Shown in pieces: positions 55,480-62,204 of a DNA stretch of 64,000 bases. The notes beneath the pieces are model-generated. The model saw only the letters and a list, made by a program, of their open reading frames with translations. It made no database searches and was not told where the DNA came from. The stretch is from Rhodocyclaceae bacterium (GTDB lineage Bacteria; Pseudomonadota; Gammaproteobacteria; Burkholderiales; Rhodocyclaceae), in contig JACFMQ010000015.1 of the NCBI GenBank assembly GCA_019455325.1, forward strand, positions 16,309-80,308, written 5' to 3'. The position numbers and the translations under genes are program-made. Within the stretch, counting starts at the first letter, position 1, and each line of letters starts with the position of its first letter.

Positions 55480-57645
55480 TCAGAAGGTATAGCGCGCGCC
55501 GGCGCCGACCAGCCAGTTGCGCCCCGGCGCCGATTCGTAATAGCGGCCGTTGCCGTCGCCGACGATGACCGAGCCGACGTACTGCCGGTCGAACAGGTTG
55601 TCCACGCGCGCGAAGGTCCGCAGCAGCCATGGACCGTACTTCCTTTCCACGCCCACGCGCAGATTGGCGATGGCGAAGCCCGGCGCCGCCGGCTGCGCGT
55701 TGCTGTCCTCGACGTAGATCTTGCTGCGCGCGGTCGCCTCCAGCGCCGCCTGGAAGCCGCTCGCCGCGTGCCGCCAGGCCAGTTCGCCGAACAGCGTGTG
55801 CGCGGCGATGCCGGGCAGCCGCCGGCCGGCGGCGACGGTGCCGCCGCCGCTCGTCACGAAGCTCTGGTCGTAGATCGCGCGCAGCCCGGTGTAGGCGACG
55901 CGGCTGGTGAAGCCGTTGCCCCACTCGCTGTCCGCCGCCAGCTCGACGCCGCGGCGCAGCGTCTGGCCGGCGTTGCGGTAGCTGGTGCGGCCGCCGGACG
56001 AGGCGGCGACGACCAGTTCGTCGTCGGTGCGCACCTCGAACAGCGCCAGGTCGACGCGCGTGTTGTCGCCGACGAAGGCCTTGACGCCCGCCTCCAGGTG
56101 GCGGCTGCTCGCCGGCTTCAGGTCGAAGCTGAAGCCGCCGTTGGCGCCGGAGTAGAACAGCTCGTTCATGGTCGGCGCCTCGAAGCCGCGCGCGGCGCTG
56201 GCGTAGAGGTTGAGCGTCGGCGTCAGCTTGTAGGTCGCGGCCAGCACCGGCGTCGTCCGCCGGTAGGTCACCGCGCCGCTGTCGTCGCCGTTGCCGACGG
56301 CGACGTAGCGGTCGTCCACCTCGAAGCGCACGACGCTGCGGCGCAGCCCGGCCAGGAAGGTCCAGCGCTCGCCCTGCCACTCGGCCTGCACGTAGGGGTC
56401 GGTGCTCGTCACCTCGTCGGTCTCCCGGCGGCGCAGATTGCCCTTGACGCCGCAGACCGTGTCGCCGACGCCGCAGACGGGCGCGGCGCTGGTGGTGACG
56501 AAGTTCTCCCAGCCGCGGCGCTCGTCGGTCGAGGTCTCGCGGTCGATGCCGAAGGTCGTCGTCAGCCGGCCGCCGGCCAGGTCGCGGCGCATGATCCAGC
56601 GCAGGCCGACGCCGGCGAAGTCGCGGTCGAAGTCGATGATGCCGCCGGAGTGCCGGCGCTGCGCCGCGCCCGCCGGCGCGCCGGCGGCGATGCGCTGCAC
56701 GGCGATCGGGATCGACTGGTACTGGATCACCGAGCGCCGCCCCATGTACGCCGAGACCTGCAGCGCGTCGTCGCCGAAGCGGCGCTCGTAGCTGAGGCCG
56801 CCCTGCGTATGCTCGATGCTCTTGCGCGTGTCGAAGGTCAGCGCCGCCGCATCGACCGACTTCGGCGCCGCGCGGTACTGGTTCCAGTTCAGGCCGAGCG
56901 GATCGTCCGCGTCCATCTGGCGGAAGCCGTTGGCCACCAGCGTCAGCCGGCTGTCGGCGTCGGGCGCGAAGGAAAGCTTGGCCATCTGCTGGTCGCGCGT
57001 CGCCGAACTGTGGTCGCGGTAGCCGTCGGTGGCAAAGCGCGAGGCGTCGAGCACGTAGCCGACGCCGCCGGCCTCGCCCTGCGCCGCGACGTCGATCTTC
57101 CAGGTGCCGTAGCTGCCGGCCGAGAAGTTCGTCTCGACGCTCGGCGGCCCCTTGCCGTCCGGCGTGAACAACTGGATGACGCCGCCGGCGTGGTTGCCGT
57201 AGACCGCCGACAGCGGCCCGCGCATGACCTCGATGCGCTCGGCGCGGTCGAGGTTGAAGGTCGCCGCCTGCCCCTGCCCGTCCGGCATCGACGCCGGGAT
57301 GCCGTCGGCGACGAGCCGGATGCCGCGCACGCCGAAGGCCGAGCGGGCGCCGAAGCCGCGCGACGAAATCTGCAGGTCCTGCGCGTAGTTCTGGCGGTTG
57401 AGCACGGTGATGCCGGGCACCGCGGCGAGCGCCTCGGAGGCGTTCACGCGCGCCCGGCCGGCGCCGATGCGCTCGGCGTCGACGACGTCGACCGCCGCCG
57501 GCAGGTCGAAGCTGCTGTGCTCGATGCGGCTGCCGGTGACGACCACCGTATCGAGGGTCAATGCGTCGGCGGCGGCGAGGCCGGGCAGCGCCGCGGCGAC
57601 GAGGAGCGCCAGCGGGCGGCGGGCGAAGCGGAGAGAAACATTCAT
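55480..57645 (-). CDS. pqqU: TonB-dependent receptor resembling PQQ receptor PqqU (YncD)
   Basis: This 721-residue receptor has a signal peptide (PLALLVAAALPGLAAADA), plug domain and barrel ending in YTF. It matches remembered E. coli YncD/PqqU in long stretches: NRQNYAQDLQISSRGFGARS, RGIRLVADGIPASMPDGQGQ, RGPLSAVYGNHAGGV, YQSIPIAVQ, GFEAPTMNELFYS, and YVGSVIVGDGNGRYYESAPGRN. PqqU imports the redox cofactor PQQ across the outer membrane. The presence of pqqA and pqqD directly upstream in the same orientation strongly supports this assignment. The ATG at 57645 begins the signal peptide. Confidence 0.85.
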   Translation of the reverse strand: MNVSLRFARRPLALLVAAALPGLAAADALTLDTVVVTGSRIEHSSFDLPAAVDVVDAERIGAGRARVNASEALAAVPGITVLNRQNYAQDLQISSRGFGARSAFGVRGIRLVADGIPASMPDGQGQAATFNLDRAERIEVMRGPLSAVYGNHAGGVIQLFTPDGKGPPSVETNFSAGSYGTWKIDVAAQGEAGGVGYVLDASRFATDGYRDHSSATRDQQMAKLSFAPDADSRLTLVANGFRQMDADDPLGLNWNQYRAAPKSVDAAALTFDTRKSIEHTQGGLSYERRFGDDALQVSAYMGRRSVIQYQSIPIAVQRIAAGAPAGAAQRRHSGGIIDFDRDFAGVGLRWIMRRDLAGGRLTTTFGIDRETSTDERRGWENFVTTSAAPVCGVGDTVCGVKGNLRRRETDEVTSTDPYVQAEWQGERWTFLAGLRRSVVRFEVDDRYVAVGNGDDSGAVTYRRTTPVLAATYKLTPTLNLYASAARGFEAPTMNELFYSGANGGFSFDLKPASSRHLEAGVKAFVGDNTRVDLALFEVRTDDELVVAASSGGRTSYRNAGQTLRRGVELAADSEWGNGFTSRVAYTGLRAIYDQSFVTSGGGTVAAGRRLPGIAAHTLFGELAWRHAASGFQAALEATARSKIYVEDSNAQPAAPGFAIANLRVGVERKYGPWLLRTFARVDNLFDRQYVGSVIVGDGNGRYYESAPGRNWLVGAGARYTF

Positions 57646-57667
57646 CGGTATCGTTCCTGGCAAGGGT

Positions 57668-57946
57668 TCATGCGGCCGGCCGCAGCCAGCCCTTGTCGTG
57701 CGCCAGCGCGACGAAGCCGCGCGTGCCGGCGGCCACCTCGGCGGCGTCGCCGGCGAAGACGGCGGCCAGCTCGGCGGCGATCTCGTCGACGCTGCGCCGG
57801 CCGTCGCAGCGGCTGAGTATCTCGCCGGCGGACGGGTTCAGTTTGATCAGCCCCTCCGGGTAGAGCAGGATAAATGCCTCCTGGCTCGGCTCCCAGCGGA
57901 ACACGAAGCGCGGGTCGAGCCGCGGGCGGAAATTGGCGCTGTCCAT
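57668..57946 (-). CDS. pqqD: PQQ biosynthesis protein PqqD (RiPP recognition element)
   Basis: This 92-residue protein matches PqqD: RPRLDPRFVFRWEPSQEAFILLYPEGLIKLNPSAGEIL, then RCDGRRSVDEIAAELAAVF, ending in ALAHDKGWLRPA. PqqD binds the PqqA precursor and delivers it to the radical-SAM enzyme PqqE. It lies 54 bases after the pqqA stop and 22 before the receptor start. PqqE and the other PQQ enzymes are not in the window. Confidence 0.93.
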   Translation of the reverse strand: MDSANFRPRLDPRFVFRWEPSQEAFILLYPEGLIKLNPSAGEILSRCDGRRSVDEIAAELAAVFAGDAAEVAAGTRGFVALAHDKGWLRPAA

Positions 57947-58000
57947 CGTCGTCGCGGGCCGGCGGCGCGGTGCGTGTTCCGCCCGCGCCGCCGCGTCGCC

Positions 58001-58075
58001 TCAGCGCACGTAGACGTAGGCCGTGACCTCGAAGCCGAGGCGGATTTCGCAGTAGGCGGGGGTTTCCCAGTTCAT
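58001..58075 (-). CDS. pqqA: PQQ precursor peptide PqqA (24 aa)
   Basis: This 24-codon gene encodes MNWETPAYCEIRLGFEVTAY followed by VYVR. It has the PqqA hallmark Glu16-x3-Tyr20, whose side chains are cross-linked into PQQ, and the leader pattern W..PAY.E/D.R.GFEVT.Y. A GGAGA ribosome-binding site lies 7-11 bases before the ATG. It heads a minus-strand group with pqqD and the PqqU-like receptor. Cys9 is unusual compared with the common Thr/Val. Confidence 0.93.
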   Translation of the reverse strand: MNWETPAYCEIRLGFEVTAYVYVR

Positions 58076-58259
58076 GACGTGTCTCCCAGATTGGCGGAGC
58101 GGCACCGCGCCGTTCCTGTGCCGATTATTCGGCGCCCGCCGCCGCCGGCGCCTGCGCCCTTCGTCCAGAAGCGCCTACAGAAAATCATGAAACGGCGGCG
58201 GCCCGCAGGATCGCCGGTTGCCCTGCGCCGGCCCGCAGCGCCGGCAAGTGCTCCACTTT

Positions 58260-59110: not shown

Positions 59111-60100
59111 ATGAGTACGCAACACGGAATGATGTCGGTGGCCGATGCCGCGACGCTGATCAGAAGCGGGTGCAGCCTGTGCATCGCCGGCGACGAATCG
59201 GCGCTGCGCCGCCTGCCGGCCGGCAACTGGATCGGCGGCACGACGCCCTACTTCATGGGCGAGCGCGGCGGCCTGATCAGCCGCGACGCGGTGCATGCGA
59301 CCGTCGTCGCCGAGCACGGCGGCCGCCCCCGGACCCGCTTCTACGACGCCGCGTCGCTGCCGCAGCTCTGCCGCAACGCGCCCGACCACGGCTACAGCAT
59401 CCTCATCCTGCCGGCGTTCAGCGACTGTCATCTGGGCTTCGCCCGCAATGCCCCGAACTACGAAGAGATGTACCTGAAGCCCCTGGTCGGCTGGGTCGCC
59501 GGCGTGCACCTGGAAGGCCCCGAGCGCGCGCGGCCGCTGGTCGCGCTCGGCAGCAGCGGCGAATTCTCGGCGACGCAGGCCGTGGTCATGGACGTGCCGC
59601 TGCCGCCGGAGAAGTTCGCCCGCGTCGATATCGTCAACCCTTTCCTGCCCGGCGACGGCGCGCGCATCACCTTCGCCGACACCGGGTTCACCGCCGGCGA
59701 CTGCAGCATCGACGGGCATCGCGGCAACCTCGCCGAGCACCTGCTGGCGACCGATGCGGACACGCGGCTGCCGCTGGTCGCCGACTACTGCGGCGCGCCG
59801 GTGAACGTCAGCATCAGGAACGTCGACCTGGCGACCGGCCTGGTCGAGTTCTACGCGCCGGTCTTTCCGGGGCTGACGTACCGTCAGGCGGCGCCGGCGG
59901 GCGACCGGCTCGCCGCCTTGCGCGCGGCGCTGCCGCCGCCGGACGCGGACATTTCGTTCGCCTGCAACTGCATCCTCAACTTCCTCCACCTGGAACTCGA
60001 GGGAAAACACAGCGGCGGCGTCACCGGCCCGGTCGGCTTCGGCGAGATCGGCTACCAGTTGCTCAATCAGACGCTCGTCTACCTGAGCGTCGGCGAGTAG
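59111..60100 (+). CDS. DUF6976-like protein with FIST-like C-terminal signature
   Basis: This 329-residue protein has no signal peptide. The C-terminal segment FACNCILNFLHLELEGKHSGGVTGPVGFGEIGYQLLNQTLVYL resembles that of DUF6976/FIST-C-like proteins, which are thought to be small-molecule sensors; N-terminal segments (GNWIGGTTPYFMGERGG) fit the same family. Naming comes from memory of family patterns and needs a profile search. It lies between the hypothetical and NosR-like genes in one operon. Confidence 0.6.
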   Translation: MSTQHGMMSVADAATLIRSGCSLCIAGDESALRRLPAGNWIGGTTPYFMGERGGLISRDAVHATVVAEHGGRPRTRFYDAASLPQLCRNAPDHGYSILILPAFSDCHLGFARNAPNYEEMYLKPLVGWVAGVHLEGPERARPLVALGSSGEFSATQAVVMDVPLPPEKFARVDIVNPFLPGDGARITFADTGFTAGDCSIDGHRGNLAEHLLATDADTRLPLVADYCGAPVNVSIRNVDLATGLVEFYAPVFPGLTYRQAAPAGDRLAALRAALPPPDADISFACNCILNFLHLELEGKHSGGVTGPVGFGEIGYQLLNQTLVYLSVGE

Positions 60101-60110
60101 GCCCGGGACC

Positions 60111-62204
60111 ATGTCCGCCATCCGCTTCGGACGCTTCGCCGCCCTGCTCGCCTGCGCCGGTTTCCTCGCCGCCCCGGCCGCCGCCGGCGTACTCACGCAC
60201 GCCGACCTGCAGCGCCACTTCCCCGAGCCGCTGCGCGTCGAGGCCAGGGACGAGAAGCTGCCGGTGTGGCCGATCGTCAAGCGCGACGGGCCGACCGAGG
60301 CGGTCGTCGCCTACGCCTTCGAGTCCATCGACCTGGCGCCGATCCTCGGCTTCGCCGGCAGCCCGTTCAACCTGCTGATCGCGCTCGACCGCGACGGCCG
60401 CTTCCTCGACGTGCGCGTGCTCTCGCAGCGCGAGCCGGTGTTCGTCGACGGCCTCGGCGCCGAGCCGCTGTTCCGCTTCGTCGACCAGTACAAGGGGCGC
60501 GGCCTGCGCGATGGCATCCGCGTCGCCTACGGCGGGCGGGGCGCCGGCGGCGACGAGCTGGACGGCATCAGCCGGGCCACCGTCTCGGTGCGCATCCTCA
60601 ACGAGACGATCCTCGCCGCCGCGCTGCAGGTGGCGCGCGAAAAGCTCGGCTTCGCGCCGGGCGGCGCGCGGCCGGCGGCGACGGTGAAGGACGGCGTGTT
60701 CGAGCCGCTGGACTGGCGCGGGCTCGTCGAGCGCGGCTACGTCGCGCACCGGCGCGCGCGCAATGCCGAAGTCGAAGCACTCTTCGCCGGCACCGTCGGC
60801 GAGGGCGTCGACGACGCCGCGCTGGAACGGCCGGACGACACGGCCAGCGAACTGTGGACGGCCTGCCTCAACGTGCCGACGGTCGGCCGCAACCTGCTCG
60901 GCGAGGCGCGCTGGCGCGCGCTGATGGCGCGGCTGGCGCCGGGGCAGCACGCGCTCCTCGTCGCCGGCACCGGCCGCCTCGGCTTCCTCGGCGAGGAGTT
61001 CATCCCCGGCACCGTGCCGCGCCGCCTCGCCGTGCGCCAGAACGACCTGACCATCGAAATCCGCGACCTCGACGTCGACCTCGCGGTGGACGGTGCGCCG
61101 GCCTTCGCCGAGCTGGCCGCCTTCGGCATCGCCGCCACCGCCGGCTTCGACCCGGCGCAGCCGTGGCAACTGGTGCAGCGCATCGAACGGCAGAAAGGCA
61201 TCGTCTGGCCGGAGCGCGTGGTCCGCGAACTGACCGTCGACCACCGGCTGCCGGAACGCTTCTTCGACATCCCGGAGAGCGAGGAAACGATCGCCTGGAA
61301 GGCCGCCTGGAAGAACCGCGCGCCGGATCTGGCGGCGCTCGCCGCGCTGTTCGCCGTGCTCGCCGCCGCCCTTTTTGCGCAGCGCCGGCTGGTGGCGAAG
61401 CCGGCGCGGCTGGCCGCCTTCCGCTGGGCGGTGCTGGCGGCGACGCTGGTCTTCGTCGGCTGGATCGCGCAGGCGCAGCTCTCCATCGTCAATCTCTCCG
61501 GACCGCTCGCCGCGCTGACGCACGGCCGCGACCTCGGCTTCCTGCTCTACGACCCGGCGACCTTCGCCGTCGCCGCCTTCACGCTGCTGACGCTCGCCGT
61601 CTGGGGGCGCGGCGTGTTCTGCGGCTGGCTGTGCCCGTTCGGCGCGCTGCAGGAGTTCATCGGCAAGGCCGCGCAGCGGCTGCGCGTGCCGCAGTGGAAG
61701 GTGCCGAAGCGCCTCGACCGCGCGCTCGGCCGCGTCAAGTACGCGCTCGCCGCCGCCATCCTCGTCGCCGCCGTCGCCGCGCCGGCGCTCGCCGACCGGC
61801 TGGTCGAGGCCGAGCCGTTCAAGACGGCGATCACGCTCGGCTTCGACCGTGCTGGCCCGGCCTTCTGGTACGCGCTGGCGACGCTGGCGCTCGGCGCCTT
61901 CGTCTACAAGGGCTACTGCCGCTGGATCTGCCCGCTCGGCGCGGCGCTCGCCACGCTGGCGCGCGTGCGCCGCTGGGACTGGCTGCCGCGCCGCGCCGAA
62001 TGCGGCCAGCCCTGCCAGCGCTGCCGCCACGCCTGCGCCTACGACGCCATCGAGGAAAGCGGCGAAATCCGCTACCACGACTGCTTCCAGTGCCTCGACT
62101 GCGTCGCCATCCACGACGACCGCAGGCGCTGCGTGCCGCTGGTGCTGATGGACCGCCACGGCCGGCCGGTGCCGCTGCACGGCCGGCGCGCGCAGAAAGA
62201 CTAG
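60111..62204 (+). CDS. NosR/NirI-like membrane iron-sulfur flavoprotein
   Basis: This 697-residue protein has a signal peptide, a periplasmic FMN-binding domain with SRATVS (the Thr that can carry covalent FMN), five to six membrane helices, two CxxxCP motifs (FCGWLCPFGALQEF and YCRWICPLGAALA) and a C-terminal cluster region (ECGQPCQRCRHACAYDAIE and HDCFQCLDCVAIHDDRRRCVP). NosR and NirI supply electrons for nitrous-oxide or nitrite reduction. No nosZ or nirS is seen here, so the partner is unknown. It ends the sigma-54-led operon. Confidence 0.9.
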   Translation: MSAIRFGRFAALLACAGFLAAPAAAGVLTHADLQRHFPEPLRVEARDEKLPVWPIVKRDGPTEAVVAYAFESIDLAPILGFAGSPFNLLIALDRDGRFLDVRVLSQREPVFVDGLGAEPLFRFVDQYKGRGLRDGIRVAYGGRGAGGDELDGISRATVSVRILNETILAAALQVAREKLGFAPGGARPAATVKDGVFEPLDWRGLVERGYVAHRRARNAEVEALFAGTVGEGVDDAALERPDDTASELWTACLNVPTVGRNLLGEARWRALMARLAPGQHALLVAGTGRLGFLGEEFIPGTVPRRLAVRQNDLTIEIRDLDVDLAVDGAPAFAELAAFGIAATAGFDPAQPWQLVQRIERQKGIVWPERVVRELTVDHRLPERFFDIPESEETIAWKAAWKNRAPDLAALAALFAVLAAALFAQRRLVAKPARLAAFRWAVLAATLVFVGWIAQAQLSIVNLSGPLAALTHGRDLGFLLYDPATFAVAAFTLLTLAVWGRGVFCGWLCPFGALQEFIGKAAQRLRVPQWKVPKRLDRALGRVKYALAAAILVAAVAAPALADRLVEAEPFKTAITLGFDRAGPAFWYALATLALGAFVYKGYCRWICPLGAALATLARVRRWDWLPRRAECGQPCQRCRHACAYDAIEESGEIRYHDCFQCLDCVAIHDDRRRCVPLVLMDRHGRPVPLHGRRAQKD

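What the first reader, a model, noticed from the sequence alone, without database searches (positions are those of the whole stretch)
55480..58075. pqqA-pqqD-pqqU mini-cluster without pqqB, pqqC or pqqE
A 24-codon pqqA (58001-58075), pqqD and a receptor that matches PqqU/YncD over long stretches lie in one orientation with short gaps and a terminator at the end. Usually pqqA and pqqD sit with pqqB, pqqC and pqqE. Coupling the precursor and its carrier protein to the importer suggests a unit for balancing PQQ synthesis and salvage, or a PqqA/PqqD remnant kept beside uptake. The layout is not one I know as described.
Basis: partly seen in the sequence, partly recalled or inferred. Interest (0 to 1): 0.78.

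Follow-up and report, generated by a model that had tools for sequence, protein, structure and literature searches.

The report
PQQ operon missing pqqB and pqqC
A bacterium related to Dechloromonas has lost two genes of its operon for the vitamin-like cofactor PQQ but keeps the precursor, carrier and importer genes behind what looks like a PQQ-specific DNA switch, which suggests that it went from making PQQ to taking it up.

Summary
The three genes are real: pqqA, pqqD and a PqqU-type TonB receptor, in one orientation. They look like a deletion product rather than a purpose-built unit. Two congeners carry pqqB-pqqC-pqqA-pqqD-pqqU between the same flanks; a third carries pqqB-pqqC-pqqA-pqqD. 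The window genome lacks about 1.77 kb holding pqqB, its promoter element and nearly all of pqqC. Neither gene was found elsewhere in the assembly (31 contigs, rated 100% complete). An intact pqqE lies on another contig near two PQQ-dependent alcohol dehydrogenases. The receptor keeps the published PQQ-contact residues. Most likely this cell imports PQQ, its own synthesis being blocked after the peptide-crosslinking step (A, D, E), whose genes are intact. One other near-complete genome among 121 sampled shows the same absence.

An unexpected find is a palindrome, TCATGAwwwTCATGA or a close variant, 105-177 nt upstream of pqqA in 39 of 39 loci examined (16 of these built the model) and upstream of 32 of 36 stand-alone pqqU genes, but of 0 of 5 pqqU genes that follow pqqD. 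It looks like a shared PQQ operator. Importer genes beside PQQ synthesis genes are already in print; the deletion, the operator and the split into an A-D-E part and a B-C part were not found in my searches.

The parts
58001..58075 (-). pqqA, 24-aa PQQ precursor MNWETPAYCEIRLGFEVTAYVYVR, with Glu and Tyr in E-x-x-x-Y spacing
   Evidence: Pfam and NCBIfam matches over cut-off; the same peptide type in 15 other loci
57668..57946 (-). pqqD, 92-aa PqqA-binding chaperone
   Evidence: PF05402 and TIGR03859 over cut-off; the only PqqD match in the genome
   Evidence: 296 of 686 aligned residues identical to E. coli PqqU, K274, R304, R365 and R536 kept, Phe at Y99; best PDB hits YncD/PqqU
58176..58190 (-). 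palindromic operator-like element TCATGATTTTCTGTA, 115 nt upstream of the pqqA start
   Evidence: Same kind of element upstream of pqqA in 39 of 39 loci and of 32 of 36 stand-alone pqqU genes; one of two strict-pattern matches in this genome
58204..58238 (.). deletion junction: 35 bp in place of 1,766 bp (pqqB, its promoter element, nearly all of pqqC) of congener G053
   Evidence: Flanks align on both sides to G053 and G106; against G106 the right-hand match starts at 58191, so the borders are good to a few tens of bases

Best explanation
The trio is what remains of a pqqB-pqqC-pqqA-pqqD-pqqU operon after a deletion removed pqqB and pqqC. SHOWN by sequence: the gap between syntenic flanks; no PqqB or PqqC match in the assembly; intact pqqA, pqqD, pqqE and pqqU; the retained pqqA operator-like element; two PQQ-dependent alcohol dehydrogenases in the genome. 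INFERRED: PqqE with PqqD can still crosslink Glu and Tyr in PqqA, but without PqqB and PqqC the intermediate is not finished to PQQ (the roles of PqqB and PqqC are textbook knowledge, not tested here). The cell therefore fills its dehydrogenases with PQQ imported through PqqU. The remaining pqqA-pqqD-pqqU unit and the separate pqqE are probably still switched on together through the TCATGAwwwTCATGA element, so the importer stays under PQQ control and A, D and E come along, not yet decayed.
For: G053 and G106 have B-C-A-D-U at the syntenic place; G123 has B-C-A-D. Flanks match at 82-88% identity. PqqC: no match here, 371 bits in G053 and G106 in the same search. PqqB: no match here, 419-424 bits in G053, G106 and G123 in the same search. 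PqqE at C25:177364-178398, 472.5 bits, cut-off 381.35, keeps all 109 columns that are invariant in 34 other PqqE sequences, 10 cysteines included. Two TIGR03075 dehydrogenases (717.3 and 784.5 bits, cut-off 480.05) lie about 7-12 kb from pqqE. PqqU contact residues are kept.
Against: A, D, E and U have no internal stops, so the synthesis half is not visibly decaying. Only this genome shows this junction; no second strain was available. The assembly has 31 contigs, so a relocated pqqBC in a gap is not excluded, nor is a PqqC substitute too distant for the profile. Neither PQQ uptake nor need for it is shown.
Confidence: 0.8

Rival explanations
1. The A-D-E part is still selected for itself: it makes a crosslinked PqqA peptide or dipeptide that has its own use, or that neighbours with PqqB and PqqC finish, while PqqU brings finished PQQ back.
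For: All 109 invariant PqqE columns are kept. The deletion spares the pqqA operator by 13 bp. G103 (99% complete) has A, D, E and U but no B or C match. In 4 of 4 genomes with two PqqE one set is A-D-E without B-C.
Against: Each of those four genomes still has one B-C pair that both sets could feed. A recent deletion would leave the same intact genes. PqqE looks somewhat relaxed here: dN to D. denitrificans is 0.138 against 0.103 (G053) and 0.110 (G106) at similar dS; changes unique to this genome are 53.8 non-synonymous to 43.2 synonymous, against 9.5 to 23.5 and 11.8 to 23.2 (the count for this genome includes the stem of the other two); its tree branch is 0.19 against 0.085-0.095 for the path to its sisters.
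Confidence: 0.12
2. Assembly artefact: pqqB and pqqC exist but were dropped or lie in an assembly gap.
For: 31 contigs; pqqE lies about 8 kb from a contig end and the window ends at a contig end 5.9 kb from pqqA.
Against: The junction lies inside a contig with homologous sequence on both sides and 35 bp between; rated completeness is 100%; no piece of either gene was seen.
Confidence: 0.06
3. PqqB and PqqC are replaced by unrelated enzymes and PQQ is still made.
For: Two PQQ dehydrogenases and an intact A-D-E set are kept.
Against: 28 of 31 PqqE-bearing genomes of 121 sampled have PqqC. I know of no PqqC substitute (recall).
Confidence: 0.02

Closest known systems
PqqU (YncD), PQQ importer of E. 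coli
   Same: 43% identity; of five PQQ-contact positions four are kept and Y99 is Phe, which PMC12124388 accepts
   Different: Encoded behind pqqA-pqqD; NCBIfam equivalog cut-off not reached (680.6 against 1200)
pqq operons in synteny with pqqU (four Burkholderiales genomes, PMC12124388, passage)
   Same: Import and synthesis genes together in one orientation, the state of congeners G053 and G106
   Different: pqqB and pqqC are gone in the window genome and pqqE is unlinked
Partly duplicated or split pqq sets (P. putida pqqD-II, PMC12997753 passages; D. denitrificans with B-C-A and D-U on two contigs)
   Same: pqq genes scattered, some in extra copies
   Different: Here no B-C pair was found anywhere in the assembly

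Membership tests
PqqU PQQ transporter | Y99 (or F/W), R304 and R365, the signature used in PMC12124388 | tested here: met
   F110, R310, R382 of the 727-aa reading; K274 and R536 also kept
PqqU PQQ transporter | NCBIfam equivalog cut-off of 1200 bits | tested here: not met
   680.6 bits: best family by far, but distant from the E. coli type (43% identity)
PqqU PQQ transporter | High-affinity PQQ uptake | not testable with these tools
   Needs an uptake or growth assay
PqqA precursor peptide | Profile match over cut-off and E-x-x-x-Y | tested here: met
   GFEVTAY
PqqD chaperone | TIGR03859 over cut-off | tested here: met
   85.3 bits, cut-off 46
Complete PQQ biosynthesis set (A, B, C, D, E) | PqqC in the genome | tested here: not met
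   No match; found in 31 of 121 genomes by the same search
Complete PQQ biosynthesis set (A, B, C, D, E) | PqqB in the genome | tested here: not met
   No match; found in 9 of 15 genomes by the same search
Complete PQQ biosynthesis set (A, B, C, D, E) | PqqE over cut-off with its cysteines | tested here: met

The most novel reading that the evidence does not exclude
The PQQ system falls into two parts: a peptide-crosslinking part (PqqA, PqqD, PqqE) that can be duplicated, moved and kept alone, and a finishing part (PqqB, PqqC) kept at most once per genome. In the window genome and in G103 selection keeps the crosslinking part without the finishing part, behind an undescribed PQQ operator that also drives the importer; the crosslinked intermediate would then be used or exchanged rather than finished.
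Probability: 0.12. Interest if true: 0.75.

Novelty: new variant of a known kind. Interest (0 to 1): 0.5.

Why it matters
It catches a step on the road from PQQ producer to PQQ scavenger: the finishing enzymes are gone, while the importer and its likely switch are kept. The palindrome links pqqU with pqq genes by sequence alone and makes a so far unnamed PQQ regulator findable in this bacterial family. Genomes with two A-D-E sets but one B-C pair suggest that PqqB and PqqC act on a product common to both PqqA types.

Tried and rejected
Rejected: a purpose-built A-D-U unit (relatives show what is missing); a receptor of another kind; a known RNA family at the locus (three matches, all below their gathering scores); arrival of the trio from elsewhere (flanks syntenic).

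Against the operator: 4 of 36 stand-alone pqqU genes lack it. In 5 whole genomes the strict pattern has 16 places (17 rows; the reversed-pattern control has 1): I assign 5 to pqqA and 1 to pqqU, two others are start codons of PII-type genes (name recalled), 8 are unassigned. For pqqE and pqqB no site passes the 99% null, which itself contains real sites. Many loci are close relatives and not independent. E. coli pqqU has a weak match only (8.4, uniform background) and Duganella L160 scores 4.6, so the element is not shown outside this family.

Limits: junction borders rest on pairwise alignments; against G123 they could not be placed cleanly. dN/dS is a simple Nei-Gojobori count and does not date the deletion. 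The leader hairpin was not tested for covariation. PqqF/PqqG proteases were not searched for. One PqqE reference was out of frame and gave no family; PqqE rests. Papers: PMC12124388, section 10 whole and passages of the rest; PMC13300288 and PMC12997753, passages; all others, search listings only. 'Not in print' rests (three exact 15-mers) found 0 papers.

Full report
OBSERVATION. pqqA (58001-58075), pqqD (57668-57946) and a PqqU-type receptor (55480 to 57645, or to 57663 with a TTG start) are real and on the minus strand. The gaps are 54 bp (A to D) and 22 bp (D to the ATG at 57645). The receptor is 43% identical to E. coli PqqU (296 of 686 aligned positions), keeps K274, R304, R365 and R536, and has Phe for Tyr99, a change that PMC12124388 accepts in its signature.

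GENOME. The window is G000:C15:16309-80308 of a 4.46-Mb assembly in 31 contigs, rated 100% complete and 2.03% contaminated. It has one PqqD match, one PqqE over cut-off, on contig C25, no PqqC match and no PqqB match. Two PQQ-dependent methanol/ethanol-family dehydrogenases lie about 7-12 kb from pqqE.

WHAT HAPPENED. The genus set holds 7 genomes, this one included; 4 of 7 match the locus DNA. Of the other three with the locus, G053 and G106 have B-C-A-D-U; G123 has B-C-A-D, with no PqqU match in the remaining 3.7 kb of its contig. The three without a match are 65-87% complete. Among named records fetched through the receptor, Dechloromonas hortensis (L134) and isolate AG28 (L153) have B-C-A-D-U and Dechloromonas sp. 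STC_94 (L137) has E-B-C-A-D-U; most other loci show pqqU without pqq genes nearby. Relative to G053, positions 7248-9013 of L099 (1,766 bp) are absent here and 35 bp (58204-58238) stand in their place. The lost piece holds the pqqB promoter element, pqqB and all but the last codons of pqqC. Against G106 the right-hand match starts at 58191, so borders are approximate. pqqE is unlinked in the congeners too: about 31 kb (G053) and 26 kb (G106) from pqqB.

HOW COMMON. Of 121 family genomes, 31 have PqqE and 28 of these 31 have PqqC. The exceptions are this genome, G077 (85% complete, no PqqD or PqqB match either) and G103 (99% complete, 320 contigs). G103 also lacks PqqB; it has pqqA-pqqD at a contig end, pqqE on a second and pqqU on a third contig.

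TWO TYPES, TWO PARTS. Two PqqE groups separate on the tree (type 2: 14 of 35 rows, support 100/100; the program warns of long branches, G049 and G094). Where pqqA was seen, type-2 loci have GFEVTAYVYVR and the others GFEI(T)-type endings, mostly GFEITMYIAxR. Four genomes (G028, G045, G060, G110) have two PqqE and two PqqD but one PqqC and one PqqB. In G028, G060 and G110 the type-2 set is A-D-E without B-C in the 13-14 kb read; in G045 it is the other set, on a 10.5-kb contig. I infer that B and C act on a product common to both PqqA types.

STATE OF THE REMAINING GENES. A, D, E and U are open. PqqE keeps all 109 columns invariant in 34 others. It evolves somewhat faster than in the two congeners (dN to D. 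denitrificans 0.138 against 0.103 and 0.110; branch 0.19 against 0.085-0.095); PqqD and PqqU show no such excess towards D. hortensis. Constraint looks reduced for PqqE but not lost.

THE OPERATOR. A palindrome TCATGAwwwTCATGA or close variant lies 113-157 nt upstream of pqqA in 16 of 16 type-2 loci (15 by strict pattern, one with a single change). A matrix made from these sites alone was then tested on other genes. pqqA of the other type: 23 of 23 loci score at least 13.1, at 105-177 nt (one locus had only 146 nt upstream). Stand-alone pqqU: 32 of 36 score at least 12, at 71-153 nt; pqqU just behind pqqD: 0 of 5; 5 of the 46 loci given were not testable; 2.0% of 2,460 control stretches reach 12. 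Type-2 pqqE: 10 of 14 pass the 95% null, and the four that fail are those where pqqE directly follows pqqD. Type-2 pqqB: 7 of 10 pass, and the three that fail lie behind pqqE. In the other type, sampled thinly, pqqE passes in 0 of 4 and pqqB in 1 of 4, as inner genes should. In G053's whole genome the strict pattern occurs once, at pqqA; in this genome twice, once at pqqA. The window copy (58176-58190) survives 13 bp from the junction; pqqE here has a weaker copy at -101 (12.6). The binding protein is unknown. A histidine kinase and a LuxR-type response regulator stand upstream of the hydrolase gene that precedes pqqE; a link is a guess.

MECHANISM AND NOVELTY. Best reading: PQQ synthesis is blocked after crosslinking, PQQ comes in through PqqU, and the importer stays under the PQQ switch. 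pqqU in synteny with pqq genes is in print. A Sphaerotilus paper reports genomes lacking pqqA or pqqE (passages). Loss of B and C with A, D, E and U kept, and the palindrome, were not found in the searches named under Tried and rejected.

Noticed in passing
L120 9175-10467 (G000:C25); also L113 1-1014, L106 11811-12698, L194 466-1500: An alpha/beta hydrolase of the S33 / proline-iminopeptidase kind (name by recall) stands next to pqqE here and in G103, between pqqU and pqqE in G049, and divergent from pqqA in G044: a candidate PqqA-processing peptidase.
   Followed up: partly
L120 11827-12333; also L110 8294-8791, L109 7746-8252, L111 8184-8690, L118 1578-2096: A similar-looking protein of 165-172 aa follows pqqE in these five loci; the window genome's copy matches part of the urate oxidase N-terminal family.
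   Followed up: partly
L120 3883-9502 (G000:C25): A TonB protein, a second TonB-dependent receptor, a histidine kinase and a LuxR-type response regulator lie between a PQQ dehydrogenase and pqqE.
   Followed up: partly
window 60086-60174: About 13 kb that congener G053 has between the DUF6976 gene and the nosR-like gene are absent here.
   Followed up: no
window 58076-58130 and pqqA leaders of type-2 loci: A GC-rich inverted repeat lies between an AATAAT-like stretch and pqqA in many type-2 loci; it may be a hairpin at the 5' end of the mRNA.
   Followed up: partly
L103 and L105 (Dechloromonas denitrificans): The operon is split: pqqB-pqqC-pqqA on one contig and pqqD-pqqU on another.
   Followed up: no
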